42,890 bases of DNA from Planctomycetaceae bacterium (GTDB taxonomy: Bacteria; Planctomycetota; Planctomycetia; Planctomycetales; Planctomycetaceae), in contig JAKFWA010000100.1 of the NCBI GenBank assembly GCA_021732995.1, forward strand, positions 1 to 42,890. The letters are read 5' to 3'. Positions 23,429 to 41,063 of this stretch are shown piece by piece. The notes beneath the pieces were generated by a model. The model did no database searches. It saw only the letters and a list, made by a program, of their open reading frames with translations, and was not told the origin of the DNA. The translations under genes and the position numbers were made by a program. How positions within the stretch are numbered: the stretch's first letter is position 1; each line of letters starts with the position of its first letter.

Positions 23429-24616
23429 ATGCATCTACTTCAACGATATATCCTGAAGGAGCTTGTGCGAGTCCTCGTACTCGTGCTGTCGTTGCTGACG
23501 GTGCTGCTGGTGTTCGTGGGCGTGTTTCGTGAAGCGACGGCCAGCGGGCTGGGTCTGGCGGAAACGCTGTCAATCATTCCGTACATCGTGCCCAGCATGC
23601 TGCCGTACACGATTCCGTCGACGATGTTGTTGACGGTGTGCATGGTCTATGGCCGGCTGGGTGCCGACTACGAGATTACCGCCGCGAAAGCCTCTGGGAT
23701 CAGCGTGATCTCACTGCTGATGCCGGCTTTCGTGCTCAGCGGCGTTCTGAGCGTGTCCACTCTGCTGCTGTGCGATCAGGTCATCCCCTGGTCGGTGGCG
23801 AAGATTCAACGCGTGATTTCACTCGCGATGGAAGACATCTTCCTCGACATGCTGGCTTCGCAAAGTGCTGTCAAAGATCGCGAGCGTGGGATGGCGATTT
23901 CGGCGGTACGAGTCGATAAAGCCGAGCATCGGCTCGTGAAGCCGAATATCCGGTATTCGCCTTCGGGGAAGGAACCGGTGGTCGTGCAGGCTGATGAAGC
24001 CACGGTGCGGATTGATGTCGACCAGCAGACCGCCATCATTCATTTCAAACAGGCGTGGATTGACGCTCCGGGCGGTGTGACGCTGAAACTGGACGATCAG
24101 GAGTTCGCCTTCCCGATGGCGGGACTACGCAAGAATGAGGTGCGGTCGCGCAATCTCAATTTGAACGCGATTCAGCGGCAGTTGGTGGAGCTCAAGGAGC
24201 AGTCGCAGGCCGCAGAGGAACAGCGGGCGATCTCTACCGCGTTCACGCTGGCGCTGGGCCACTTCAATGAGTTCACCGAGGTGCCGTTTCAGCACTATCA
24301 CGAGCGGCTGCGAATGAACGTCATTATGACCAACAAGCACCGCACTGAAGTGCAGAATCGTTTTGCTTTGTCGTGCAGTTGTATCTTCTTCGCGTTGCTG
24401 GGCAGTCCGTTTGCCGTGCTGCAGGCTCGCAGTCAGTTCCTGACGAACTTCTTCTTGTGCTTCTTGCCCATCCTGCTGGTGTACTACCCGGTGGTCTTGC
24501 TGATGATGAACCTGTCCATCACGGGCAAGGTGAATCCCGCGATTGCGATGTGGTTGGGGAATTTCTTGCTGTTTATCGGTGCCAGCGTTGTGTTAAAGAA
24601 GGCGATCCAACATTAG
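23429..24616 (+). CDS. LptF/LptG (YjgP/YjgQ) family LPS export permease
   Basis: The 395-residue membrane protein has the layout of LptF/LptG, the permease half of the ABC system that extracts LPS from the inner membrane: an N-terminal MHLLQRYILKELVRVL amphipathic start, three helices (about 12-33, 50-75, 95-118), a periplasmic beta-jellyroll region (about 125-300) and three C-terminal helices (about 310-390) with RFALSCSCIFFALLGSPFAV. I cannot decide between LptF and LptG. Only one such gene is seen here; LptB and the second permease must lie elsewhere. No clear ribosome site precedes ATG 23429. Same-strand neighbours include KdsD and a giant OstA-like protein about 5-6 kb downstream, which supports an envelope role. 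Confidence 0.9.
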   Translation: MHLLQRYILKELVRVLVLVLSLLTVLLVFVGVFREATASGLGLAETLSIIPYIVPSMLPYTIPSTMLLTVCMVYGRLGADYEITAAKASGISVISLLMPAFVLSGVLSVSTLLLCDQVIPWSVAKIQRVISLAMEDIFLDMLASQSAVKDRERGMAISAVRVDKAEHRLVKPNIRYSPSGKEPVVVQADEATVRIDVDQQTAIIHFKQAWIDAPGGVTLKLDDQEFAFPMAGLRKNEVRSRNLNLNAIQRQLVELKEQSQAAEEQRAISTAFTLALGHFNEFTEVPFQHYHERLRMNVIMTNKHRTEVQNRFALSCSCIFFALLGSPFAVLQARSQFLTNFFLCFLPILLVYYPVVLLMMNLSITGKVNPAIAMWLGNFLLFIGASVVLKKAIQH

Positions 24617-28585: not shown

Positions 28586-29617
28586 ATGGGTGCCTCGCCG
28601 GTCAAGCAGGCCATTCCCTTTACGCAGTTCGATCAGCTTCGCGAAGCGCGAGACATCGTGCGGCAGGAAGCCGATGCGCTGACAGAACTTGCGAAGCGCC
28701 TCGACACGCGGTTCTGCGATGCCGTCGAGCTGATCATGTCCTGTTGCGGTCGAGTGGTCGTCACCGGTATCGGCAAGGCTGGGCACATCGGCCAGAAGCT
28801 GACAGCGACGCTCAGTTCCACCGGCACACCCGCCCATTTTCTCCATCCCGCCGAAGCCATGCACGGCGACTTTGGCAGCCTCGGCGCGGGCGACGTAGTG
28901 CTCGCCCTGTCGAACAGCGGTGAGACGCCCGAGATCTGCTCGCTGCTGGGTACCTTTCATCATCTGCGAGTGCCGATCATCGCCATCACCGCGACCGCGA
29001 CGAACTCATTGGCGCGTCAGGCCGATGTGGTGCTCGAAATCGGCCGCCAGCCGGAAGCGGGCATCCTGGGACTCGCGCCTTCGACCAGCACCACCATGAT
29101 GCTCGCACTGGGCGATGCTCTGGCTCTCGTCGTCAGCCGGTTGAAGGGGTTCACGGCTCAAGACTTTGGCATCTTCCATCCGGGTGGCAATCTCGGCCGG
29201 CAACTGACTTCGATTCGCGATGTCATGCGCTGCGGCTCGGAGCTCCGCATTGCCCAGGAACACGAGACTGTCCGCGAGACATTGCGTCGCTTGAGTTCGT
29301 CCGGCCGACGGACGGGAGCCATCCTGATTGTCGATGCGGAAGGGCAACTCACCGGACTGTTCACCGACAGTGATCTGGCTCGCCTGCTGGAACGCCATCG
29401 CGATGAACAACTCGACCGCCCGATTCAAGAAGTGATGACCCGCAGCCCGACGACCATCCGTGACACCGCGTTCCTCAGTCACGCGGTCACGTTGCTGACC
29501 GAGCGGAAGATCAGCGAACTGCCCGTTGTCGATGGGAGCGGCGTCCCGATCGGCCTGATCGACATCACTGACGTCATTGGACTAACCGCGCCCCCTGATC
29601 CTCGAACCAGCAAGTAA
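28586..29617 (+). CDS. kdsD: Arabinose-5-phosphate isomerase (KpsF/GutQ family)
   Basis: The enzyme interconverts ribulose-5-phosphate and arabinose-5-phosphate, the entry step to Kdo, the inner-core sugar of LPS. The 343-residue protein has an SIS sugar-isomerase domain (about 40-185; VVVTGIGKAGHIGQKLTATL, HGDFGSLGAGDVVLALSNSG) and two CBS domains (about 215-335), the standard KdsD arrangement and length. The PGGNLGRQL motif joining the two parts is present. ATG 28586 has AGGGACG upstream at good spacing. The next gene, 68 bases downstream, is the OstA-like bridge candidate; kdsD next to lptC/lptA is a conserved order in Gram-negative bacteria (kdsD-kdsC-lptC-lptA-lptB in E. coli), although kdsC and lptB are missing here. 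Confidence 0.95.
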   Translation: MGASPVKQAIPFTQFDQLREARDIVRQEADALTELAKRLDTRFCDAVELIMSCCGRVVVTGIGKAGHIGQKLTATLSSTGTPAHFLHPAEAMHGDFGSLGAGDVVLALSNSGETPEICSLLGTFHHLRVPIIAITATATNSLARQADVVLEIGRQPEAGILGLAPSTSTTMMLALGDALALVVSRLKGFTAQDFGIFHPGGNLGRQLTSIRDVMRCGSELRIAQEHETVRETLRRLSSSGRRTGAILIVDAEGQLTGLFTDSDLARLLERHRDEQLDRPIQEVMTRSPTTIRDTAFLSHAVTLLTERKISELPVVDGSGVPIGLIDITDVIGLTAPPDPRTSK

Positions 29618-29685
29618 CCCGGAGATTCTTTCGGCCTGAATTTCGGAACCTGAATCTGAACCACCTGACCCTTACGATCGCCGTC

Positions 29686-32600
29686 GTGCTGATGCTCGCC
29701 GCTGCGTATTTTCCATACGCGTGGGGAGTCGGGGTCCTGGTGCGCAATCAGCAGGTCGAACAGCAGCAGCCGGAAGACGAACCATCAACTCCGGAACCCA
29801 AAGCTCCACGACAACTGGTTGAAGCCGAGCGGATCGCATTGCAGCACCTCAGCAGCCAGCCGTGGGCGCAGAACGCGAACATTCAATTCCGCGACGGCAA
29901 TGAATTCTTCTTCTATGCGGAAAAGTTCGAGCAGACAGACACCAAGGAAGCGATTCGCTTCGAGCCGATCGCACTGGTCATGTTCTCAAAAGACGGACCG
30001 CTGACCATTGTGGCAGAATCTGCGCTGGTGCAGTTTCAGGGTGAGTTGCGGCTCAACAATCCGAAGCCGGGGCGAGTCATCAACGCTCGTCTGGAAGGCG
30101 CCGTCGAGATTCGTGGCGAACGCAATCTGGCCATCAACGGCAGGCAGTTCTTCTATTCGGAAAAGGCCGCCCGGATCTGGTCCGACAATCCGGCACAGTT
30201 CAGTTACGAAGATCATCGCGGCGAGTCCGATCAGGGTATTCAGATCGACCTGAGTATCTCCGAAGTCGATCTCCCCGGCCGTCAGCTAAACATTGAAGGC
30301 GTGCAGCGCGTGCAGTTGTTCCAGCACGTCTTCATGGAGCTGGCATTACCAGGTGAGCAAGGTCGCGAACCGAAACCGCTCTCCGTGCAGTGCGAAGGCA
30401 GCTTCAGGTTTGAATGGAAAGACAAAGGTCAGTCAGCGCTCGCGATCTTCGAGGACAAAGTCAAAGTCCGGCAACCAACGTCACCGACCGAGATGGATGG
30501 CATCGACTGTGACCGGCTGGATGTGTCGTTCGGTCAAGTGGCCGTCGCGCCGGAAGGTGTTGCGCAGAACAACAAAGATTCGTTGGCGCTGCGGACGCAG
30601 TTGCAACCGAAGTCGTTCGTCGCACGTGGTGCGCCGATCGTGGCGACTTCAGATCGCAGTCAGTTGCGCGCGACGCTGGGCTATTTGCGTTACGACGTCG
30701 AACAACGTGCCCTGGCGATGGCCGGTTCCGAGAACAACGCCACGCTGACCCGGCGCGGGAGCACGGCGAAGTCGAAACCCATCCGGATCACTCAGGCCAA
30801 CAGCGAAATCGAATCGCAACAGATCGCTCTGAAGCACGACGCGGACCGCAACCTCAAGGAAGTTGTGTGTCGCGGTGAAGGCTGGCTGACGTACCTCGAC
30901 CCGAAGACGCAAGAACCTGCGATGATCGTTGAATGGGTCGATCAGTTGCGGAAGTATCCAGATTCAGCCTCGCCGCTGGACATCGTGGACCTCACCGGCA
31001 ACGCCAGCGTCAAACAGCCGCAGCAACGCACCGGTCTGTCCGCAAACTACATCAAGCTCTGGATGGACCCACTGCAGCCCGCGATACCTCAAGCCGGAAA
31101 AAAGGCGACGCTCGATCCGCAACCGCATCGCATGTTGGCTCTCGACAACGTGACGCTGGTCAGCCCCGAACTGAAGGGTACGACCACTCAACTGCAGGTC
31201 TGGTTTGATGACGTGAAGCTGAAGCGCGAACCGTCTTCCCCGACCGGGCCGCTCAAACAGGCGTCACTTCGCACACCACAACGTACAGATGTCGCATCAA
31301 CGGGACGCAAGCCCAAAGATCCCGGCATGCGGATTCAGCCTGCGGGCGGCGAACTGCAGGAACCTGAGACACTGCCGGCCGACGAGGAAGATCCCATCCC
31401 GGCGCCGAAAGCCAAAATCAAAGAGCCGCTGGTCGTGAACTCGAAGTTGATTCGAGTTCTGGTCGCGGGGCGCGGTCCGAACAGTAAGCCCGAAGTCTCC
31501 GAAGTCTGGACCGAGGGCAACGTGCATGTGTCGCAGAATCGTTTGCCGGGACAGGCGCCGTTGGAACTGTTTGCCGACCAACTGCACATCAAAAATGAAG
31601 GCGATAACGATCAGGTCATCCATCTGCTGGGTCAACCCGCGCGGATCGATGATCCCTCGTTCGGGCTAGTCGGTCGCGAAGTCTTCCTGAATCGAGGCCG
31701 CAACGTGATGTGGGTCGACGGCGAAGGCGAACTGAGTCGCCTGATTGACCGCGACTTCGAAGGCCGACCGCTCGCCTCGCCGACTCAGTTCACGGTGCAC
31801 TGGGATGAGCAGATGGTCTTTGACGGACTCATCGCGAAGTTCAATGGTCGCGTGCACGCGGCGATGCAGGACAGCTCGATGAAGTGTCGCCAGATGGAAG
31901 TTCAGATGAAACGCCGCGTGTCCTTCCAGGACAGCGAGCAGGCTCTGGAGAAGGATCTGGTTGAGCGCGTTGTGTGTCGCTACTCGGTCGAAGTGATCTC
32001 GACGGAAGGTGGTAAGGACGGTGCTCCGGCACACGAATACCGTCGCGGGCGGTTTGTCGAATTTGCGATGGATATGACTAAGGGAATCGCGGCGGCCAAA
32101 GGCCCCGGCACGTTGCAGATCTGGCAACGGGGCCGAGGCAAGCTGACTGGTCTGGCTCCTTCAGGTGTCAGCGGCGCCAATCAGGCCATGCGTCCGCGCG
32201 ATGTCGGTTGGGACTATACGCAGATCGAATTCAACGACGTCATGAACCTGAAGTCTCAACGCGAGTCGCACGCCCGGTCGGCAGTGGCGGCTCAACAGAA
32301 CAAGTCCGGCATGGACCGTTATGCCAGCACTGCCACATGCACGGGGCAGGTGCGAGTAACCTACGGGCCGGTCGACGAACCTCTGACATCGTTCAACACC
32401 GACCGCCTGCCGAAGGATGCGGTGCTGCTTTCCTGTGATGACTTTCAGGCGGCTCAACAGCCGCCGAAGGCTCCGGGTGGTAAGCCGACCGTCGAGTTCA
32501 TTGCCGAGAAGAACGCCCGCGTCGAAGGGCACGGCTTCAACGGTCAGGGCGATTTCATTTCGTTCGATGGTGCGAACGACTTGTTCACAATCCGCTCGCT

Positions 32601-32742
32601 GGGCGATGCGGATTCCATGTTGCAACGCGAAGCTCGACCCGGTGCGGGGGGAGTTCCAGTGGTCGCGAAGACCATTCGGTTCAGTCGCACCAGGAACAAG
32701 ATCGATATTGGCGACGCGTCGTTCGCGGAGGGGATTCAATGA
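29686..32742 (+). CDS. Giant LptC/LptA (OstA)-like periplasmic protein
   Basis: From GTG 29686 the protein has 1018 residues: a hydrophobic N-terminus anchoring it in the inner membrane, then two long beta-rich stretches (about 60-520 and 580-1010) separated by a P/E/K-rich linker (about 530-580). Repeated strings are OstA-like: the ladder RVINARLEGAVEIRGERNLA then INGRQFFYSEKAARIW, and HLLGQPARIDDPSFGLVGRE then VFLNRGRNVMWVDGEGEL. LptC and LptA are each under 200 residues in E. coli, so this looks like several such units in one chain. Location directly after kdsD supports an Lpt role; the family call rests on motif style and context. The start is doubtful: hydrophobic sequence continues upstream in frame to a CTG at 29656 preceded by GGAA. 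It overlaps the lipoprotein gene by ATGA. Confidence 0.72.
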   Translation: MLMLAAAYFPYAWGVGVLVRNQQVEQQQPEDEPSTPEPKAPRQLVEAERIALQHLSSQPWAQNANIQFRDGNEFFFYAEKFEQTDTKEAIRFEPIALVMFSKDGPLTIVAESALVQFQGELRLNNPKPGRVINARLEGAVEIRGERNLAINGRQFFYSEKAARIWSDNPAQFSYEDHRGESDQGIQIDLSISEVDLPGRQLNIEGVQRVQLFQHVFMELALPGEQGREPKPLSVQCEGSFRFEWKDKGQSALAIFEDKVKVRQPTSPTEMDGIDCDRLDVSFGQVAVAPEGVAQNNKDSLALRTQLQPKSFVARGAPIVATSDRSQLRATLGYLRYDVEQRALAMAGSENNATLTRRGSTAKSKPIRITQANSEIESQQIALKHDADRNLKEVVCRGEGWLTYLDPKTQEPAMIVEWVDQLRKYPDSASPLDIVDLTGNASVKQPQQRTGLSANYIKLWMDPLQPAIPQAGKKATLDPQPHRMLALDNVTLVSPELKGTTTQLQVWFDDVKLKREPSSPTGPLKQASLRTPQRTDVASTGRKPKDPGMRIQPAGGELQEPETLPADEEDPIPAPKAKIKEPLVVNSKLIRVLVAGRGPNSKPEVSEVWTEGNVHVSQNRLPGQAPLELFADQLHIKNEGDNDQVIHLLGQPARIDDPSFGLVGREVFLNRGRNVMWVDGEGELSRLIDRDFEGRPLASPTQFTVHWDEQMVFDGLIAKFNGRVHAAMQDSSMKCRQMEVQMKRRVSFQDSEQALEKDLVERVVCRYSVEVISTEGGKDGAPAHEYRRGRFVEFAMDMTKGIAAAKGPGTLQIWQRGRGKLTGLAPSGVSGANQAMRPRDVGWDYTQIEFNDVMNLKSQRESHARSAVAAQQNKSGMDRYASTATCTGQVRVTYGPVDEPLTSFNTDRLPKDAVLLSCDDFQAAQQPPKAPGGKPTVEFIAEKNARVEGHGFNGQGDFISFDGANDLFTIRSLGDADSMLQREARPGAGGVPVVAKTIRFSRTRNKIDIGDASFAEGIQ

Positions 32743-33311
32743 TCGGGCAAAGGTGTTTCCGGACACTGGCATGTCTGCTGTTATTATTCAGTCTGACCGC
32801 GCTGACCGGCTGCGTCAGCACGATGCAGCCCTGCTCGAATCCGCTCTTCGTGCGCGCCAACAACTGTGAAGATGTCTGGGAACGCACGGTCGACGTGCTG
32901 CACGCGTATCAGTTCCCGATCGATCGCGAGAACAAACTCGATGGCACGATCGAGTCCAAATACAAGATCGGCTCTGGAGTTCTCGAACCGTGGCACGCGG
33001 ATTCGGCGACTTTCGAAGACCGCCTCGAAAGCTCGATGCAAACCATCCGCCGCCGGGCGACGTTCATGATCTACCCCGGTGAAGGCGGCTACTTCGTGAC
33101 CTGCGAAGTCCAGAGGGAAATCGAAGACCCGGATCACCTGCTGTTCAATTCACCCGGCTACGCCACCTTCCGCGAGACCACTCCGCTGCAACGCCAACTG
33201 GACGTCGTCATCGGCCCCTCGACCCCCGACGGCTGGATTCCGCACGGCCGAGACCCCAACCTCGAAGCATCGATGCTCTCCGCGCTGCGACACGCACTCA
33301 CGCATCCGTGA
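32739..33311 (+). CDS. Lipoprotein coupled to the OstA-like gene
   Basis: The 190-residue protein has a textbook lipoprotein signal: basic MIGQRCFR, hydrophobic LACLLLLFSLTA, and lipobox LTGC at 22-25, so Cys25 should be lipidated after cleavage by signal peptidase II. The mature part is a small alpha/beta domain of unknown family (VWERTVDVLHAYQFPIDREN; RRRATFMIYPGEGGYFVTCE). Residue +2 after Cys is Val, not Asp, so by the E. coli rule it would go to the outer membrane; whether planctomycetes follow that rule is not known to me. Its ATG overlaps the stop of the preceding OstA-like gene (ATGA at 32739-32742), which implies translational coupling and a shared task. It could be the outer-membrane end of the same transport path, by inference. 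It ends 11 bases from the convergent regulator gene. Confidence 0.88.
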   Translation: MIGQRCFRTLACLLLLFSLTALTGCVSTMQPCSNPLFVRANNCEDVWERTVDVLHAYQFPIDRENKLDGTIESKYKIGSGVLEPWHADSATFEDRLESSMQTIRRRATFMIYPGEGGYFVTCEVQREIEDPDHLLFNSPGYATFRETTPLQRQLDVVIGPSTPDGWIPHGRDPNLEASMLSALRHALTHP

Positions 33312-33322
33312 GCATTCGCTCG

Positions 33323-33970
33323 TTAGACCAACCGTTCGCGGAGTGCGGTGGCGACGGCTCCGGCGCGGTTGTTGACGTGCAGCTTTTGATAGATGTTGCG
33401 CAGGTGGGAATCGACGGTGTGCTGGCTGAGGTCCAGGCGGGCGGCGATTTCTTTCTTGGTGAGGCCATTCACAACGTGGCGCAGAACGTCGAGTTCGCGC
33501 TCGGTCAGGCCCTGATCGCCTTGCTTGGGTTTCTGGCCGGAGAAGAGATCAAGCACTTTGCGGGCGATCTCGGGATTCATCGACGCGCCACCGCGTGAGA
33601 CTTCGCGGATGGCTTCGCTGATGCGCTCCATCGGAGACGTCTTCAGCAGGTAACCATCGGCACCGGCGCACACAGCGCGGAAGACTCGATCGTGATCATC
33701 GAAGACCGTCAGGATCACAATCTTCACGGCGGGCGCGACCGCTCGAATGCGCGGCAGGCCGGCAATGCCATCGATGCCCGGCAGGCCAATGTCCAGGAGG
33801 ATGATGCCTGGCGGCGAGTGCGCGGCGATATACGCCAAGGCCGGTTCGACCGCGCCGAAGTCTGCGTCGCAATACAGGCCGGGCATCGCATTGATCGCCG
33901 TCGCCAGCGTCTTGCGCAGGCGTTCGTTGTCTTCAATCAACCAGACTCGAACTGCGGATGAGTCGATCAT
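33323..33970 (-). CDS. NarL/FixJ-family response regulator
   Basis: The 215-residue protein (from ATG 33970; a GTG two codons upstream is possible) has a receiver domain with acidic residues in LIEDNE, phospho-acceptor Asp60 in IILLDIGLPG, and Lys in LLKTSPMERI. A LuxR-type helix-turn-helix follows (about 148-212; LTERELDVLRHVVNGLTKKE, then SQHTVDSHLRNIYQKL). It lies 66 bases downstream of the discoidin-domain sensor kinase on the same strand, the usual order of a two-component pair, so that kinase is its probable partner. Targets are unknown; the kinase's carbohydrate-binding-type domains suggest a glycan-responsive regulon. Confidence 0.95.
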   Translation of the reverse strand: MIDSSAVRVWLIEDNERLRKTLATAINAMPGLYCDADFGAVEPALAYIAAHSPPGIILLDIGLPGIDGIAGLPRIRAVAPAVKIVILTVFDDHDRVFRAVCAGADGYLLKTSPMERISEAIREVSRGGASMNPEIARKVLDLFSGQKPKQGDQGLTERELDVLRHVVNGLTKKEIAARLDLSQHTVDSHLRNIYQKLHVNNRAGAVATALRERLV

Positions 33971-34036
33971 TTCCACGTTTCTTTGTTGATGCCCATATGG
34001 ATCATGCAGAGTGACGTCTGCTGTATTACCTTCGCT

Positions 34037-36190
34037 TCAGGACGTTCGTTTGAACCGTCTCAGCACTTTTCCGGTCAGGGGCGCCTTGATGTGGACAGTC
34101 GTGCCTTCGCCAGGAGAACTCACAACGTCCACCGTACCGTTCAAAACATCCAGTCGCTTCTTGAGGTTGCCCAAGCCGTAACCGCCGTCCGTCGGACCGG
34201 CAATGATACCGGTGCCGTTGTCTGTGACTTCAATGTTGAAAACCCCGTGCTCAATACGCACGACGATATCCAGCTTGGAGCCCTTACTGTGCCGCACGGC
34301 GTTGTACAGGGCCTCTTTGAACGACAGGAACACATTCCGGCGCCAGGCCAGATCGACGAAGTAGACTGGTACTGGATCGGGAGAAGTGAACTGCGTCTCG
34401 TAGCCCTGCGTCATGCGACTGTTGATGACACGCATGCGGCCGATGAACTCGTCGAGTCCCGTCGACAGCCCGCGCATCAACCACAGGATGTCACGCATCG
34501 CGTCGCCTGTCTCTAACGCGATCGTGCGAATCTCCGAAATATTGAGCTGAACTTCTTCAAAGCTGCCCTTCACACCGAACGTCTGACACAGCAGAGCGAT
34601 CGTGCCCAGGTTACTGCCGATGTCATCGTGCAGGTCACTGGCGATCTGGCTGCGGAGACGTTCGGTCTGTAGTTGCAGGCGATGATGCTGCCGCCACACG
34701 ACAAACGCCACGAACGAAGCGACGCCGAGCATCAACGTGCCTACCGCCCAGCGAGCTCGCTGCCAGAAGCGGCTGACGGCGGCCTGAAATTTCTCGTCGG
34801 AGAGAATCAGTTGCTCTTCAATATCGCGCCGCCTCGCGATCTGGGACAGCCATTCCACCGGTGATGCCAGTTTGTGCGAACTGGAGAAGTCGTCTACCAG
34901 AAAGGCCGGTGACCAGCGTTGCCCGTATTCGGAGCCTGCGGCGTCCGAGGCCGTCACCGGTCGCCCGAGTGCCACATTGGTATTCTCGGACCAGACTTGA
35001 ATCTCAGCGAGGGCCAGGTAGTTCGGGGCGTTCCGCGAATCCAGCCGCGAGGTGGTCAGCTTGACGTAGCGACCGAACAAGGACCCCGAAGGAAACGGAA
35101 AGCGAACACCGTCCGCCGGTGCCACATCGCCCCGCGAAAACGCCTGCCTGAGATCCGCGGGAAGCACGAGCGCCTGATTGGCTTCATGCCTGACCCGTGC
35201 CTCGGAAAAGTCGCACAAGGGCTGCGCATCCGAGAAATCCGGGCTGTTGGCGACTTCAATGCGGAAGCTCTGCGGTACGCCCCAACCCGGAATATCCGGC
35301 CGATCCACCGGCCGTGCAGGGATCAGACGGACTTCATCGATGTGAAAGCCGCGCTGCAGATCGATCTGAATCCATTTTTCCGCTGTCGGCGAATCCGAGG
35401 CCGCTGACAGGTAGCCATTGGTTCGACTGACTTCGCGCGTCGTCGGCACCGGCAGAATGGAGAGCTCATCGACGAGATACTGCTTTGACCAGCGGGATTC
35501 AGCTTCGATGGATGACGATGCCGACACCGGTCGCCACGACGCGATGTTGCGGTCGCCGGAGATCACCATCAACTCGCCCAGCGCAAAGAACGGGCTGAGT
35601 CCCGCCACCGCCAGCTTGGTGCAGGTGACTCGTACATAGCGGCCTTGCACGTTCAGCCCCGCGAACTCGCAAGGGTACTTGCCCGGATTGGGGAAGTCCG
35701 CCGCAGTCTGATCCGCAACCAGTGAGGACTGTCGGAAGTCAGGGTCAACCGAAACCTGCACGCGAAAACGCAACGGAAATCCATAGCCGTTCTGCACGAC
35801 GCTTTCCTGCACGATGCTCACCGGCACCAGTGCAATGGACTCGATGTCGACCACATGGCCCAGATCCACCTGCACCCACTGTGGATCGAGACTGGACTTC
35901 ACAAACTGGCTGTGAAAGCCAGCTCGCCCACCCGTCTGGGCTGCGAACTCCGGCAGCACGCCGAGTCGAATACGGTTGCTGCGACGCTCGAACAACAGGT
36001 CGCCGATTTCCGGACTCAGGAAGAGCACCACGTTGTCGACTTCGGGATCCTTGTACCGATCCAGAGTCTGCGCCGCCGAACTGCCCGCCATTAGCCAAAG
36101 CAGCGCGATCGCGATGACAGCGGGGTGACTCAGCAGGCGGTTCGGGCGCATGATGGCGGTGGTCTTTTCTTTTTGAGCAGCAGCTCTCAT
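34037..36190 (-). CDS. Sensor histidine kinase with discoidin-type sensor domains
   Basis: The 717-residue kinase has a signal peptide or first helix (about 20-40), a large periplasmic part (41-460) built from F5/8 type C (discoidin)-like units, one transmembrane helix (about 482-502), a HisKA_3 dimerisation domain with phospho-His521 in ASDLHDDIGSN, and an HATPase with DNGTGI and GYGLGNLKKRL. I see two full discoidin-like units (about 45-205 and 210-405; markers NIASWRPVSASS, WIQIDLQRGFHIDEVRLIPA, GRYVKLTTSRLDS) and the opening of a third (NVALGRPVTASD, near 412). Such domains bind sugars or polymers, so this may sense extracellular polysaccharide. ATG 36151 (Met14) is an alternative start. 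The NarL-type regulator follows on the same strand. Confidence 0.92.
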   Translation of the reverse strand: MRAAAQKEKTTAIMRPNRLLSHPAVIAIALLWLMAGSSAAQTLDRYKDPEVDNVVLFLSPEIGDLLFERRSNRIRLGVLPEFAAQTGGRAGFHSQFVKSSLDPQWVQVDLGHVVDIESIALVPVSIVQESVVQNGYGFPLRFRVQVSVDPDFRQSSLVADQTAADFPNPGKYPCEFAGLNVQGRYVRVTCTKLAVAGLSPFFALGELMVISGDRNIASWRPVSASSSIEAESRWSKQYLVDELSILPVPTTREVSRTNGYLSAASDSPTAEKWIQIDLQRGFHIDEVRLIPARPVDRPDIPGWGVPQSFRIEVANSPDFSDAQPLCDFSEARVRHEANQALVLPADLRQAFSRGDVAPADGVRFPFPSGSLFGRYVKLTTSRLDSRNAPNYLALAEIQVWSENTNVALGRPVTASDAAGSEYGQRWSPAFLVDDFSSSHKLASPVEWLSQIARRRDIEEQLILSDEKFQAAVSRFWQRARWAVGTLMLGVASFVAFVVWRQHHRLQLQTERLRSQIASDLHDDIGSNLGTIALLCQTFGVKGSFEEVQLNISEIRTIALETGDAMRDILWLMRGLSTGLDEFIGRMRVINSRMTQGYETQFTSPDPVPVYFVDLAWRRNVFLSFKEALYNAVRHSKGSKLDIVVRIEHGVFNIEVTDNGTGIIAGPTDGGYGLGNLKKRLDVLNGTVDVVSSPGEGTTVHIKAPLTGKVLRRFKRTS

Positions 36191-36330: not shown

Positions 36331-37449
36331 TTGTCACGTTTCGCGTACCACCTCGACCATCAGGATGCACACACTGCCGCGCGACTCGGCCGCTGGATCA
36401 CGCCACACGGCCCGGTGGAGACCCCGGCCTTCATGCCCGTGGGAACTCAGGCTTCTGTCAAAGGACTGACCCCCGAACAACTGAAACGCGTCGGCGTCCA
36501 GAAAGTGTTGGCGAATACCTATCACCTCGCCCTGCGCCCCGGCTCGGAACTGGTGGCTGACATGGGCGGCCTGCACGGTTTCATGGGCTGGGACGGCCCC
36601 ATCCTCACGGACAGCGGCGGCTTCCAGGTTTTCAGTCTGGCCCAGTTGCGACGCATGTCCGAAGACAGCGTGGTGTTCAAATCCCACTTGGACGGCAGCC
36701 TGTTTGAACTGAGTCCGGAACGGGCGATGCGAATTCAGGAGCAGCTCGGTGCGGACTGCATCATGTGCCTCGATGAGTGTCCGCCGGCGGACGTTCCACA
36801 CGAAAAAGTGCTGGCGGCGGTCGACCTCACGACCCGCTGGGCTCGCCGGTGCCGCGATTCTCATCAGCGTTCCGATCAGGCTCTCTTCGGAATCGTTCAA
36901 GGTGCGACGTTCCCTGATCTGCGCGAGCGATCGGCCAGAGCACTGCTCGAACTGGACTTCCCCGGCTACGCGGTGGGCGGCTTGAGCGTCGGCGAGAGTC
37001 CAGAGCAAATGTACGCAACCTTGGACGTCACCGTACCGTTCCTGCCAGCCGATCGACCGCGCTATCTGATGGGTGTCGGACGCCCTGAAGACCTGCTTGA
37101 GGCTGTCTGCAGGGGCATTGATCTGTTCGATTGTGTCATGCCGACGCGTAACGGACGCAACGCGTTAGCCTTCACCAGTCAGGGCAAAGTGCGGCTCCGC
37201 AACGAATCCTTGAAGCGGGATTCCTCGCCGCTGGACCCCGAATGCGAGTGTCCAACCTGCCAACAGTTCTCGCGGGCGTACCTGAGACACCTGTTCGCCG
37301 CGAAGGAGATGCTCGGCCCGATTCTGGTGTCGTGGCACAACATCGCATTTTACCAGAGGTTGCTGCGCGATCTCCGAACCGCCATCCGTGAGGACCGGGC
37401 GGCTGAGTTCCGGGCGTCTCAACTTGCCCGGTGGGGGGGCGATTCCTAA
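36331..37449 (+). CDS. tgt: Queuine tRNA-ribosyltransferase
   Basis: Tgt exchanges guanine-34 in the anticodon of tRNA-Asp, -Asn, -His and -Tyr for the queuosine precursor preQ1. The 372-residue protein has all key elements: general acid/base Asp94 in [11 protein letters not shown], nucleophile Asp267 in [14 protein letters not shown], and the zinc site CECPTC with a later histidine in SWHN. Length is normal. Translation starts at TTG 36331: no ATG or GTG precedes the conserved N-terminus, and AAAGGGA lies six bases upstream. It heads the tgt-yajC-secDF block, an order found in many bacteria, although queA is not seen here. About 200 bases separate it from yajC. Confidence 0.96.
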
Positions 37450-37649
37450 TCTACGGCCCCTTACCCGCTGGATCTTGCACGGCGGCGCCCGTTGGCGCGC
37501 CCGCTTGCCATCGACGCTCTGGCAGTCGCTTTGTACGACTGTTCGCTCGCGATCAAATCTGGCGGGATTTCTTGATCGTTTTCGTGATCACGGCGTTGAC
37601 CCCACATTGAGGCCGTATCGCAATTCATTCGTACGACAGATTTGTATCT

Positions 37650-38000
37650 ATGTTTGAACTCCTGGCGTTTCTGAATCTGGTGGCTGCGGAAGAGCGGCGT
37701 GAGCCTGGTTGGCAAGCCATGCTGGTCTTCTTGGGCCCGGTCGTGGTCCTGTTCTACTTCATGGTCTTGCGACCAGCGACCAGCGAGCGGAAGAAGCACT
37801 CCGAAATGCTGAACGCACTGAAGAAGAACGATCGTGTCGTGACGATTGGTGGCATTCTTGGAACGGTGGCCAGCATCTCGGACGACAGGAACGAGGTCAC
37901 GATAAGGTGCGAAGACAATGTCCGTATCAGGTTTCTGCGGAGTTCCATCAGCCGCATTCTGACGGACGAGAAGAAAGACGAATCGCCCGCCAAGAGCTGA
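37650..38000 (+). CDS. yajC: Preprotein translocase subunit YajC
   Basis: YajC is a small single-helix partner of SecDF in the Sec translocase. The 116-residue protein has one transmembrane helix (about 24-42; MLVFLGPVVVLFYFMVLRP, the last three residues being the family's LRP/RPQ position), then a cytoplasmic domain with LKKNDRVVTIGGILGTVASI. The family pattern is clear. About 20 residues precede the helix, slightly more than usual. ATG 37650 lacks a strong ribosome site. It lies 60 bases upstream of secDF. Confidence 0.95.
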   Translation: MFELLAFLNLVAAEERREPGWQAMLVFLGPVVVLFYFMVLRPATSERKKHSEMLNALKKNDRVVTIGGILGTVASISDDRNEVTIRCEDNVRIRFLRSSISRILTDEKKDESPAKS

Positions 38001-38060
38001 GTGTTCGCTCGCCCTGGTGGTCTCGATGATTCATTGCCATAGCGCAAAGGACTGAGTTCG

Positions 38061-41000
38061 ATGTTGGAACTGCTCGCGCAAACGTCTCAGATGACAGCTC
38101 AAGATCCTGGTGCCCCGCAATCGGCTAACGGTCTGGTCATCTTTGCCTTGTTCTTGATGATCCTGATCGTTCCGCAGATTGTGAGCTACTTCGCCTGCAA
38201 GTGGCTGAAGAGCCCGGATCTGACGGAACGTCTGGCCGCAGTGCTCACAGCCCTGCTCGCGGCCATTACTCCCATGTGTTATCAGTTGGTCGCCTACCCG
38301 GATAAGTCCTTCGGCGACTTGTTCCGGCTGGGCGTGGACCTCGCTGGTGGTACGAACCTCGTCTATGAGATCAAGCAGGGCGAGCGTGAGAAGATCGAAG
38401 CCGCTGGCGAAAAGAGTTTCGACCAGATCATGAACAATCTGGTCGGCGCTGTTTCTCGCCGGGCGAATCCTTCGGGTGCTGAAGACGTGACCGTTCGTCG
38501 CGTCGGCCAGGACCGCGTGGAAGTCATCGTGCCGGGCGCTGACCAGGCCTACATTCAGGAAATGAAGGAGCGGATCAGCAAGGCGGGTACGCTGGAGTTC
38601 GAGATTCTGGCGACCAAGGATCACCCGGAGCACAGGCGGCTCATTCAGCTTGCCCGGCAGTTGCCTAATAATCAGGACACGGTTTACGAAGGGAATATTC
38701 CTGCCGCGCGCTGGGTTGAACCGGAAGCAGGCGCTCCAGTCGAAGCTGGCGGGGGCGAGACACTGCCAGCCGAATCCCGTGCAGCAACTCGCGATGGCAA
38801 CCAGATCAAGCAGTGGCTGCTGATTCTGACCGCACCTCATGAACGAGTCACCGGCGATCTGCTGGTGCGCGCGACTCCGCAGACGGAGTCGACCACCGGT
38901 GCCCCATCGGTGGGATTCCAGTTCGACACGGCGGGAGCTGTTCGGTTCAGTAAACTTACGACCAAGTATCAACCACTGAAGGATGGCAGCAAGTTTCGCC
39001 TCGCCGTGGTGCTGAACGGCCAGATTCAGTCGGCTCCAAGACTGCAATCAGCCATCGGCGCTCAGGGGCAGATCACCGGCAGCTTCACAGCGAAGGAAGT
39101 CCAGAAGCTGGTTGATATCCTCAATGCAGGTGCGTTGGACGTGCCGCTCAATGATGCGCCCGTCAGCGAATTCACCATCAGCCCGCTGCTCGGTCAGGAC
39201 GTTCGCACCAAGGGTATCAATGCCTGCATCGGCTCCGCAGTAGTCGTCTTCCTCTTCATGGGGGTTTACTACCGCCTGTCCGGCATGATCGCGAACTTGA
39301 GCCTGGTACTCAATATGTTCCTGACGATCGCCATCATGGTCTTCGTACAGGCGAGTTTCACGCTCCCCGGTCTCGCGGGTATGGCTCTCACGATCGGTAT
39401 GGCAGTTGACGCCAATATTCTGATCTACGAACGCATGCGTGAAGAAGTGGCGCGCGGTGCAAGTATCAAGATGGCGATCTTTAACGGCTTCGACAAAGCC
39501 TTCTCCGCCATCTTTGACTCCAACGTCACAACTTTGATTTCAGCCGTGATTCTTTACATGGTCGGTACGGACCAGGTGAAAGGTTTCGCGGTAACGTTGT
39601 TCGTCGGTATCGCCACTTCGATGTTCTGTTCCCTCTACTTCGGTCGCCTGGTGTTCGAGTTGCTGGAACGCAAGCGGTTCCTCAAGAAGCTCAACATGAT
39701 GGAAGCCATCAAGACGCCGTCTGTGAACTTCCTGGGCAAGATCAGGATCGCTGCGATCGCATCCACCGTCTTGATCGTCGTGTCGCTCGGCATTGCCATC
39801 AAACGCGGTGCGGAGAACTTCGATATCGACTTCCGCGGTGGAACGATGATCACGCTGCAGTTCAAGGAGCCCAGGAAGAGCGATGAGTTCAAAGCGAAGC
39901 TGAACGAGAAGTTCGGTTCGTCCCTGTCCCTTGAACAGTTGACCGTGCCAGGCGAGTCCGGCGATGCCAGCACTCGTTGGCGCGTGCGTGTGACGAACGA
40001 GAAGCCGGACGAGGTCTCCAAAGATCTGGCTGCGGCGCTGGAGTCGTTTGGGCTGCGTAAAATCACGGTGAAGCCGTCTGAAGTAACGGCGATCCCTGAA
40101 GCCACCGAAGAGCAGCAAAAGACGCTCAGCGACCGTCAACTGGCGCTCATGGGCGGCAGCGAGTTCAAGCTCACCTTCAGTGAGCCAGTCACCACCACGA
40201 CCGCACGGCAGGCCATTGTGGAGGGTATCGGCGAACTCCCGAACGGCAAGGAGAAGTACAAAGGCGCCGGTGACATGATGGAGGTCGTCGGAGTCAGTAC
40301 GGCTGAAAGTGCTCCGAAGGCCAGCGAAGTCCAACGCTTCCTGGATATCACGGTGAAGGTCCGCAAGGACATTCCGAAGGAAGACCTCGTCACAGCTCTG
40401 GTGGCCGTTGAAAAGAAGATGGCCAGCACGCCGCTGTTCGAGGAACTGACGAACTTCTCCAGCGCGGTTGGTAAGCAGACTCAACAGCAGGCCTTGCTGG
40501 CGATTGGCTTGAGCTTGATCTCCATTCTGATCTACGTGTGGTTCCGGTTTGATAGCTGGTCTTATGGCATCGGAGCCATTGTCGCGTTGTTCCATGACGT
40601 TATCGTCGCCGGGCTGGCCTTGCCTGTGGCTGCGATGCTCTCGGGCACGCCGATTGGATCCATCTTTGGGTTGGAAGACTTCAAGGTAAACCTGCCGGTC
40701 ATCGCGGCGCTGCTGACGATCGTGGGCTTCTCGATCAATGACACCATCGTCATTTTCGACCGGGTGCGCGAAATCAAAGGCAAGAGCCCCAAGCTCACCC
40801 GTGACATGGTCAACCTGGCCCTGAATCAGACGCTGTCACGCACCATTCTGACCTCGCTGACCACGGGTATGACGACGCTGGTTCTGTATATTCTGGGTGG
40901 TGAGTCCATTCACGGTTTCACCTTCTGCATGTTGATCGGCTTCATCTCTGGTGTGTACAGCACGATCTACATCGCCAGCCCGGTGATGCTGTGGGTTATC

Positions 41001-41063
41001 GACATGGAGCAGCGTCGCCAGGACGCCAAGCTGACTAAGAAGCCCGCGATTGCGAAGAAGTAG
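38061..41063 (+). CDS. secDF: Fused protein-export membrane protein SecDF
   Basis: SecDF uses the proton gradient to pull secreted proteins through SecYEG. The 1000-residue protein fuses SecD (about 1-560) and SecF (about 565-1000). SecD signatures are GVDLAGGTNLVYEI and the P1 domain; then GLAGMALTIGMAVDANILIY in the helix bundle. SecF shows NFDIDFRGGTMITLQF and the later VGFSINDTIVIFDRVRE. Two hydrophobic segments (about 27-48 and 55-75) precede P1, one more than in canonical SecD, so the N-terminus may lie outside. The periplasmic region of the SecF half is long (about 590-790). ATG 38061 has AAAGGA nine bases upstream. A perfect terminator follows. Fused SecDF occurs in other planctomycetes and in Bacillus. 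Confidence 0.96.
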   Translation: MLELLAQTSQMTAQDPGAPQSANGLVIFALFLMILIVPQIVSYFACKWLKSPDLTERLAAVLTALLAAITPMCYQLVAYPDKSFGDLFRLGVDLAGGTNLVYEIKQGEREKIEAAGEKSFDQIMNNLVGAVSRRANPSGAEDVTVRRVGQDRVEVIVPGADQAYIQEMKERISKAGTLEFEILATKDHPEHRRLIQLARQLPNNQDTVYEGNIPAARWVEPEAGAPVEAGGGETLPAESRAATRDGNQIKQWLLILTAPHERVTGDLLVRATPQTESTTGAPSVGFQFDTAGAVRFSKLTTKYQPLKDGSKFRLAVVLNGQIQSAPRLQSAIGAQGQITGSFTAKEVQKLVDILNAGALDVPLNDAPVSEFTISPLLGQDVRTKGINACIGSAVVVFLFMGVYYRLSGMIANLSLVLNMFLTIAIMVFVQASFTLPGLAGMALTIGMAVDANILIYERMREEVARGASIKMAIFNGFDKAFSAIFDSNVTTLISAVILYMVGTDQVKGFAVTLFVGIATSMFCSLYFGRLVFELLERKRFLKKLNMMEAIKTPSVNFLGKIRIAAIASTVLIVVSLGIAIKRGAENFDIDFRGGTMITLQFKEPRKSDEFKAKLNEKFGSSLSLEQLTVPGESGDASTRWRVRVTNEKPDEVSKDLAAALESFGLRKITVKPSEVTAIPEATEEQQKTLSDRQLALMGGSEFKLTFSEPVTTTTARQAIVEGIGELPNGKEKYKGAGDMMEVVGVSTAESAPKASEVQRFLDITVKVRKDIPKEDLVTALVAVEKKMASTPLFEELTNFSSAVGKQTQQQALLAIGLSLISILIYVWFRFDSWSYGIGAIVALFHDVIVAGLALPVAAMLSGTPIGSIFGLEDFKVNLPVIAALLTIVGFSINDTIVIFDRVREIKGKSPKLTRDMVNLALNQTLSRTILTSLTTGMTTLVLYILGGESIHGFTFCMLIGFISGVYSTIYIASPVMLWVIDMEQRRQDAKLTKKPAIAKK

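What the first reader, a model, noticed from the sequence alone, without database searches (positions are those of the whole stretch)
28586..33311. KdsD, giant OstA-like protein and coupled lipoprotein: a possible one-chain LPS bridge
In model bacteria LPS crosses the periplasm on LptC and several LptA copies. Here a single chain of about 1000 residues with OstA-like beta ladders sits at the lptC/lptA position after kdsD and is translationally coupled to a lipoprotein. It may form a continuous bridge suited to the wide planctomycete periplasm, with the lipoprotein as outer-membrane anchor.
Basis: inference. Interest (0 to 1): 0.7.

Follow-up and report, generated by a model that had tools for sequence, protein, structure and literature searches.

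The report
One-chain LPS bridge in planctomycetes
Planctomycetes appear to carry the lipid part of their outer membrane across the gap between their two membranes on a single very long protein, a natural fusion of two parts (LptC and several LptA-like units) that are separate proteins in model bacteria.

Summary
KdsD (28586-29617), a ~1,030-residue single-TM protein (29656/29686-32742) and a lipoprotein overlapping it by ATGA (32739-33311) are there. The giant is a conserved family: 54 of 59 genomes by one sequence. In its class it follows kdsD and/or kdsC within 2 kb in 58 of 58 non-duplicate loci with upstream DNA present, the place of lptC in E. coli. Homologues from other planctomycete classes (635-1,283 residues) carry LptC (11 of 16) and LptA/LptD_N (13 of 16) Pfam domains, both in one chain where checked; their profile hits only LptC, LptA/LptH and LptD in the PDB (14 of 14). 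The window family aligns to them almost end to end, and AlphaFold models of two members resemble LptC, LptA and LptD locally. The window genome has LpxC, LptB, two LptF/G, LptD and LptE; no separate LptA or LptC was found. Most likely a natural LptC-LptA(n) fusion: a one-chain Lpt bridge. The lipoprotein is not a conserved neighbour (0 of 40 other loci), and nothing shows that the length suits a wide periplasm. A continuous groove and LPS transport remain inferred.

The parts
28586..29617 (+). kdsD (arabinose-5-phosphate isomerase: SIS + 2 CBS)
   Evidence: Pfam SIS 7.4e-25, CBS 1e-18; kdsD and/or kdsC upstream of the giant within 2 kb in 58 of 58 non-duplicate class loci with upstream DNA present
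29656..32742 (+). single-chain LptC-LptA(n)-like bridge protein (start inferred; first ATG/GTG/TTG is GTG 29686)
29656..29745 (+). N-terminal transmembrane helix (residues 3-32 counted from CTG 29650)
   Evidence: AlphaFold helix 3-32; 19-mer hydropathy peak 1.91
29881..30342 (+). LptC-like jellyroll (approximate limits)
   Evidence: hhalign of the LptC segment of A4 against A1, prob 89.5, best at profile 121-212; strands 78-231
30379..30909 (+). LptA-like module 1 (approximate limits)
   Evidence: hhalign prob 97.3 at profile 249-415
30910..31779 (+). LptA-like module 2, holding a disordered linker (approximate limits)
   Evidence: hhalign prob 97.3 at profile 411-678
31228..31419 (+). disordered linker, residues 527-590
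   Evidence: pLDDT < 50; variable in length in A1
31792..32712 (+). LptA-like module 3 and C-terminal strands, proposed to meet LptD (approximate limits)
   Evidence: hhalign prob 99.3 at profile 687-977
32739..33311 (+). lipoprotein overlapping the giant's stop (ATGA); conserved family, but not a conserved neighbour
23429..24616 (+). LptF/LptG permease, about 4 kb upstream of kdsD
   Evidence: PF03739 2.5e-46

Best explanation
The giant is the planctomycete form of the Lpt periplasmic bridge: a membrane-anchored LptC-like domain fused in one polypeptide to about three LptA-like beta-jellyroll modules. The N-terminal helix and LptC-like jellyroll dock on LptB2FG in the inner membrane. LPS pushed out by the ABC transporter slides along the hydrophobic face of the chain, and the last module hands it to the N-terminal jellyroll of LptD/LptE in the outer membrane. 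Shown: the gene, its conservation, its place after kdsD/kdsC, the LptC and LptA domains in distant homologues, the predicted fold, and the rest of the Lpt set in the genome with no separate LptA or LptC found. Inferred: a continuous groove, the contacts with LptF and LptD, LPS as cargo, and that one molecule spans the gap alone.
For: Family and locus: 54 of 59 genomes (of the five misses G011, G037, G042, G052, G054, three match by profile); kdsD and/or kdsC upstream in 67 of 80 non-duplicate loci, 58 of 58 in the class where upstream DNA is present, 9 of 17 in other classes. Domains: other-class members, 13 of 16 LptD_N (best 4.5e-61), 11 of 16 LptC (best 1.1e-18) at E<=0.01; L150, L152 and L156 carry both in one chain; PDB sequence search, 14 of 14 hits at E<=0.01 are LptC, LptA/LptH or LptD. 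Link to the window family: hhalign prob 100 over 728 columns; domain segments prob 89.5-99.3 against at most 0.2 in 50 column shuffles each. Fold: LptC TMt 0.68-0.69; in the second model LptA mostly 0.62-0.71 and LptC 0.66-0.68. Missing parts: no PF06835 or PF03968 at E<=0.001 and no PF13100 at E<=10 in the own genome; the weak PF03968 hit at E 1.31 there is a cyclophilin. LptB, LptF/G x2, LptD, LptE and LpxC present. The seven best PF03968 hits in the 59 genomes (E up to 0.001) fall in the giant; the next, G021 C365, is an LptD. LptC-domain frames in the phylum: 46 of 50 are at least 522 residues long.
Against: Pfam finds no LptC/LptA in the window protein itself, and A1 against the PDB gives LptA only at E 0.13-0.21. 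pTM is 0.54-0.59, so domain arrangement is uncertain. The long Foldseek alignments to LptD have TM about 0.2 and rmsd about 40 A and count as local likeness only; other large beta-rich proteins (Rhs, teneurin up to prob 0.85, LPD-3 up to 0.75) rank above LptA and LptC by E-value. Module limits are soft: each LptA segment of A4 matches several places of A1, and two LptA structures fit the LptC region of A4 best. Strand alternation is modest: z 3.0 on the alignment, 1.8 on the single sequence. A 64-residue disordered linker splits the ladder. 8 of 17 other-class loci lack a kdsC/kdsD call upstream (one near a contig edge). Two genomes of the phylum have short LptC-like ORFs at this locus, 174 and 330 aa. 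In one genus of the class a 421-422 aa protein with a weak LptD_N hit (E 0.0062 and 0.068, below cut-off) exists besides the giant: a possible extra LptA-like protein there (G056, G038). The own LptD call is weak: 22.1 bits as a whole protein against a cut-off of 22.4, 22.6 in the genome search.
Confidence: 0.85

Rival explanations
1. The giant is an enlarged LptC that only starts the bridge; still undetected LptA copies, or several giants end to end, complete it.
For: LptA-type folds diverge fast: the window protein itself escapes Pfam, so a small LptA could too. A 421-422 aa protein with a weak LptD_N hit exists in one genus of the class (G056, G038). The groove is not shown to be continuous.
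Against: In other classes recognisable LptA domains are inside the same chain. The family profile finds only one place in the window genome. No PF03968, PF06835 or PF13100 protein was found elsewhere in it at the thresholds used.
Confidence: 0.1
2. It is a bridge-like lipid transfer protein of the TamB/AsmA/VPS13 type that carries phospholipids, not LPS.
For: Long all-beta single-TM chain; the LPD-3 complex (9cap) appears among Foldseek hits (prob 0.30 and 0.75).
Against: LptD ranks first and LptD, LptA and LptC mostly have prob near 1; sequence profiles hit only Lpt proteins; the locus is KDO/LPS synthesis (kdsD, kdsC).
Confidence: 0.03
3. One reading: the coupled lipoprotein is the outer-membrane anchor of the bridge.
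For: ATGA overlap in the window; the lipoprotein family is nearly universal in the class sample (56 of 59).
Against: Not in any of 40 other giant loci nor in 88 loci of all kinds; no other protein is shared by four or more of 19 homologues within 1.5 kb; LptE is encoded separately.
Confidence: 0.05

Closest known systems
LptC + LptA of the Lpt machinery (E. coli, PF06835 and PF03968)
   Same: Same fold class, same genomic place after kdsD-kdsC (E. coli order recalled), N-terminal TM helix on the LptC part, same partners LptB, F, G, D, E in the genome
   Different: One polypeptide of about 1,030 residues instead of LptC plus an unknown number of LptA copies; sequence past Pfam recognition in the window
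N-terminal jellyroll of LptD (PF03968)
   Same: Top Foldseek matches are LptD, and the same Pfam model matches 15 of 23 relatives
   Different: No LptD barrel domain called; N-terminal TM helix; a separate LptD exists in the genome (C5)
LetB, a one-polypeptide transenvelope lipid tunnel, contrasted with Lpt in PMC8727689 (passages read)
   Same: Single-polypeptide bridge concept
   Different: MCE fold (recalled), not jellyroll; different pathway
TamB/AsmA/VPS13-type beta-groove proteins
   Same: Long beta-groove idea
   Different: No sequence match found here; genomic setting and profile hits are Lpt

Membership tests
LptC (PF06835) | Pfam LptC match over the curated cut-off | tested here: not met
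   None in the window protein; 1 of 23 family members at E 0.0041, below cut-off; 11 of 16 other-class homologues at E<=0.01
LptC (PF06835) | single N-terminal TM helix followed by a periplasmic jellyroll | tested here: met
   AlphaFold helix 3-32 then strands; Foldseek to LptC 3my2, TMt 0.68, rmsd 2.6 (where in the chain it aligns is not reported)
LptC (PF06835) | kdsD-kdsC-lptC gene order | tested here: met
   kdsD directly upstream in the window; kdsC between them in many other families
LptA (PF03968 LptD_N) | Pfam match over the curated cut-off | tested here: inconclusive
   None in the window protein; 15 of 23 family members at E<=0.1; of 9 shown singly, 6 are over the cut-off
LptA (PF03968 LptD_N) | about 16-strand jellyroll fold (strand number recalled) | tested here: met
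   Foldseek to LptA 2r1a, prob 1.00, TMt 0.40-0.43 in model 1, mostly 0.62-0.71 in model 2, one chain 0.38
LptA (PF03968 LptD_N) | soluble, separate periplasmic protein | tested here: not met
   Behind a TM helix in one chain
Lpt bridge (by function) | binds and passes LPS from LptB2FG to LptD | not testable with these tools
   No binding or transport data
Lpt bridge (by function) | continuous hydrophobic groove | tested here: inconclusive
   Strand alternation z 3.0 on alignment, 3 of 2000 shuffles as high; z 1.8 on the single sequence; no coordinates to measure a groove
TamB/AsmA | match to these families | tested here: not met
   No such Pfam hit; TamB not among the 50 Foldseek hits listed for each model

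The most novel reading that the evidence does not exclude
Planctomycetes build the whole periplasmic LPS bridge from one covalent chain of fixed length that alone joins LptB2FG to LptD. It would act as a molecular ruler, so LPS export happens only where the two membranes lie about 13-20 nm apart and not across the enlarged periplasm; chain length (174 to about 1,400 residues at the same locus) would be tuned by lineage.
Probability: 0.5. Interest if true: 0.75.

Novelty: new variant of a known kind. Interest (0 to 1): 0.62.

Why it matters
A published survey lists the Lpt system of Planctomycetes as largely reduced (PMC8871954, passages read). This gene would fill the gap. How many LptA copies make one bridge is still called unknown for E. 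coli (PMC10094684 and PMC8727689, passages read); a one-chain bridge has a fixed number of modules, so length, stoichiometry and the link between bridge length and membrane spacing could be tested directly by adding or removing modules in a tractable planctomycete.

Tried and rejected
Rejected: (1) lipoprotein as LptE: a separate LptE (PF04390, 38.8 bits, C22) exists, and the lipoprotein has no PF04390 match at E<=1. (2) Lipoprotein as conserved partner: 0 of 40 other loci, 0 of 88 loci of all kinds, six of them duplicates; within 1.5 kb of 19 homologues no other protein is shared by four or more loci, only frames overlapping the lipoprotein gene itself. (3) Hidden separate LptA/LptC in the own genome: none by three Pfam models at the thresholds used; the weak PF03968 hit on C21 is a cyclophilin. 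(4) Global fit to LptD: TM about 0.2, so only local likeness is claimed. (5) Short-LptC exceptions (4 of 50 rows in open frames under 500 aa): G084 is cut by a contig edge, in G277 a second overlapping frame also matches, and G083 (174 aa) and G073 (330 aa) look real but may be deep lineages or bin errors; not resolved. (6) Weak PF03968 hits outside the giant: seven frames were scanned. L183 is LptD, L182's is a GAPDH, L093's is a cyclophilin, L177/L178 (421-422 aa, one genus) stay possible LptA-like proteins, L179 and L181 (E 0.0077, 0.058) lie opposite long frames and are undecided; L180 (G018) was fetched but not scanned, and other weak hits were not taken up. (7) Rows left out of alignments: A1 took the 22 loci of the window's own family plus the window, of 41 loci then in hand; A4 took 16 of the 19 loci that held a giant (left out: L163, contig edge; L160, L161, same class as the window).

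Led nowhere: VIA-align not on the machine; paper search was badly formed (whole-word stem) and returned nothing; A1 against PDB sequences was not significant. No paper describing a natural LptC-LptA fusion was seen in the 10 searches; that library holds openly licensed PMC papers only, and most hits were seen as listings. Cyanobacterial LptC without LptA was recalled as a possible parallel and not verified.
Full report
Observation. The giant's frame is open upstream and the family's TM helix begins before GTG 29686; compared by eye, the codon CTG 29656 aligns with an ATG of the same-genus sequence L094, so the start is not settled. Models and residue numbers below count from CTG 29650.

Family. 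With the window sequence alone, 54 of 59 genomes (own genome included) have a match. A profile of 23 members finds 130 of 391 genomes of the phylum: 61 listed rows are of the window's own class (own genome included), 69 of other classes. The 20 no-match rows shown are all from other classes, and 241 further no-match rows were not shown, so a full count for the class is not claimed. Of the five misses, G037, G042 and G054 match by profile; G011 and G052 do not appear among the matches, and whether they were in that draw is not shown. Full-length members align from the N-terminal helix to the last strand. Named relatives include Gimesia, Planctomicrobium and uncultured Planctomyces, so the window is very probably from a planctomycete near these.

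Gene order. In 41 loci inspected first (window and 40 relatives) KdsD was near in 41 of 41, while phmmer with the window protein saw the giant in 37 of 41; the other four were found by profile. Over all loci with a giant frame over 400 aa, kdsD and/or kdsC lie upstream on the same strand within 2 kb in 72 of 86. In the class, 58 of 63 non-duplicate loci have it and the five misses (L095, L097, L123, L124, L126) start at a contig edge; L094 and L095 are two pieces of one gene. In other classes 9 of 17 have it; of the eight misses one (L163) is near a contig edge. Many members outside the window's family show kdsD-kdsC-giant, the order kdsD-kdsC-lptC of E. coli (recalled).

Domains. Pfam finds nothing in the window protein, but 15 of 23 relatives match LptD_N at E<=0.1 (best 8.3e-9) and one LptC at E 0.0041, with LptD_N stretches in both halves of the chain. 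In other classes the case is open: 13 of 16 chains match LptD_N (best 4.5e-61), 11 of 16 LptC (best 1.1e-18), 3 of 16 OstA_2. L150 and L152 (658 and 660 aa, after kdsD-kdsC) have LptC at the N-terminus and two or three LptD_N stretches behind it; L156 (894 aa, after kdsC) has LptC, LptD_N and OstA_2. The profile of these 16 chains against all PDB sequences gives 14 hits at E<=0.01, all LptC, LptA/LptH or LptD. LptC fits profile 61-201; LptA entries fit 235-361, 391-512 and 542-597, but two LptA entries fit 114-158 best, inside the LptC region. The window family aligns to this profile with probability 100 over 728 columns. Segment by segment the best probabilities are 89.5 (LptC part) and 97.3 to 99.3 (three LptA parts), against at most 0.2 in 50 column shuffles of each; each LptA part also matches other places of the chain, so module limits are approximate. 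The window family also aligns to itself with a shift of about 145-175 columns (probability 97). hhalign E-values here are for one comparison and are not used as significance.

Fold. AlphaFold with 20 rows: mean pLDDT 75.3, pTM 0.59, helix 3-32, then strands 78-520 and 594-1021 with a disordered linker 527-590. A second model of a Gimesia member: pLDDT 73.4, pTM 0.54, same layout; all 19 rows of its alignment were also in the first, so it is a repeat, not an independent test. Long LptD alignments have TM about 0.2 and are only local likeness. Rhs proteins, teneurin (prob up to 0.85) and LPD-3 (up to 0.75) also appear, with better E-values than LptA and LptC. Hydropathy alternates along 39 strands of six or more residues more than in shuffles (3 of 2000 as high, z 3.0; single sequence z 1.8). 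That fits two-faced strands but does not show an open groove.

Rest of the machine. The own genome has LpxC, LptB (299.9 bits, cut-off 240), LptF/G in the window and on C21, a 1,034-residue LptD (22.6 bits, 22.1, cut-off 22.4; phmmer 1.9e-293 to the G021 frame that carries both LptD_N and LptD hits) and LptE (38.8 bits). It has no LptC at E<=0.001, no LptD_N at E<=0.001 and no OstA_2 at E<=10. In 59 genomes the seven best LptD_N hits (E up to 0.001) lie inside the giant. Weaker ones fall in the giant, in LptD-sized frames and in a few shorter frames; among these a 421-422 aa protein in one genus (G056, G038) with E 0.0062 and 0.068 could be an additional LptA-like protein. Across 244 genomes of the phylum, 50 have an LptC domain, none of them of the window's class; in 46 of the 50 the open frame is at least 522 residues. 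Of the four shorter, one is cut by a contig edge, one has a second matching frame overlapping it, and two (174 aa in G083, 330 aa in G073) may be true short forms at the same kds locus. So LptC-led chains from 174 to about 1,400 residues (1,392 in L161) sit behind kds genes, as if LptC had grown by taking up LptA modules; the direction of change was not tested with a tree.

Lipoprotein. Its family is found in 56 of 59 genomes but in none of 40 other giant loci and none of 88 loci of all kinds, and no neighbour is shared by four or more of 19 homologues within 1.5 kb. In G038 and G056 it lies about 7.5 kb upstream of the giant on the same contig. The overlap was seen only in this window.

Mechanism. 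The N-terminal helix and LptC-like jellyroll would sit on LptB2FG, LPS would move along the inner face of the chain, and the last module would meet LptD. Length: 56 strands in two sheets at 4.8 A give about 13 nm; 819 ordered residues at 159 residues and 38 A per LptA (geometry recalled) give about 20 nm. Both are crude. This is about one ordinary envelope gap (recalled), not the enlarged periplasm that PMC5394234 describes as variable (passages read).

Literature. PMC8871954 (passages) scores Planctomycetes as having a largely reduced Lpt system; PMC3422733 (passages) reports LptD and BamA in all planctomycete genomes then available; PMC5007114 (passages) describes two separate ~200 aa OstA proteins in diderm Firmicutes; PMC10542722 (passages) lists separate LptA and LptC in verrucomicrobial methanotrophs. 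No paper on a one-chain Lpt bridge was seen in the ten searches, in an openly licensed library only.

Verdict. A new variant of a known kind: a natural LptC-LptA(n) fusion that probably is the planctomycete Lpt bridge. Identity as the Lpt bridge protein is well supported; one-molecule span and LPS passage are inferred.

Noticed in passing
window 29650-29686: The giant seems to start at a non-standard codon: the family's TM helix begins upstream of GTG 29686, and CTG 29656 aligns by eye with an ATG in the same-genus genome.
   Followed up: partly
window 32739-33311; homologues L131-L149: Orphan lipoprotein family in 56 of 59 genomes of the sample with no conserved neighbours seen; function unknown, faint NlpB/BamC likeness (PF06804, E 0.025, below cut-off).
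   Followed up: partly
L172 (G083), L174 (G073): Short LptC-like ORFs (174 and 330 aa) after kdsD/kdsC in two genomes of the phylum: possible unfused or early forms, or bin errors.
   Followed up: partly
L177 2114-3376 -, L178 2093-3358 -: A 421-422 aa protein with a weak LptD_N hit in two genomes of one genus of the class: possible extra LptA-like protein.
   Followed up: partly
window 28586-29686; L031-L046 compared with L049-L051: kdsC lies between kdsD and the giant in other planctomycete families but not in the window's own family; whether kdsC is elsewhere in the window genome was not tested.
   Followed up: no
window 33323-36190: Two-component pair on the minus strand whose histidine kinase carries two F5/8 type C (discoidin-like) stretches.
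   Followed up: no
window 36331-41063: tgt, yajC and a single-chain SecD-SecF protein (1,000 aa) in a row.
   Followed up: no
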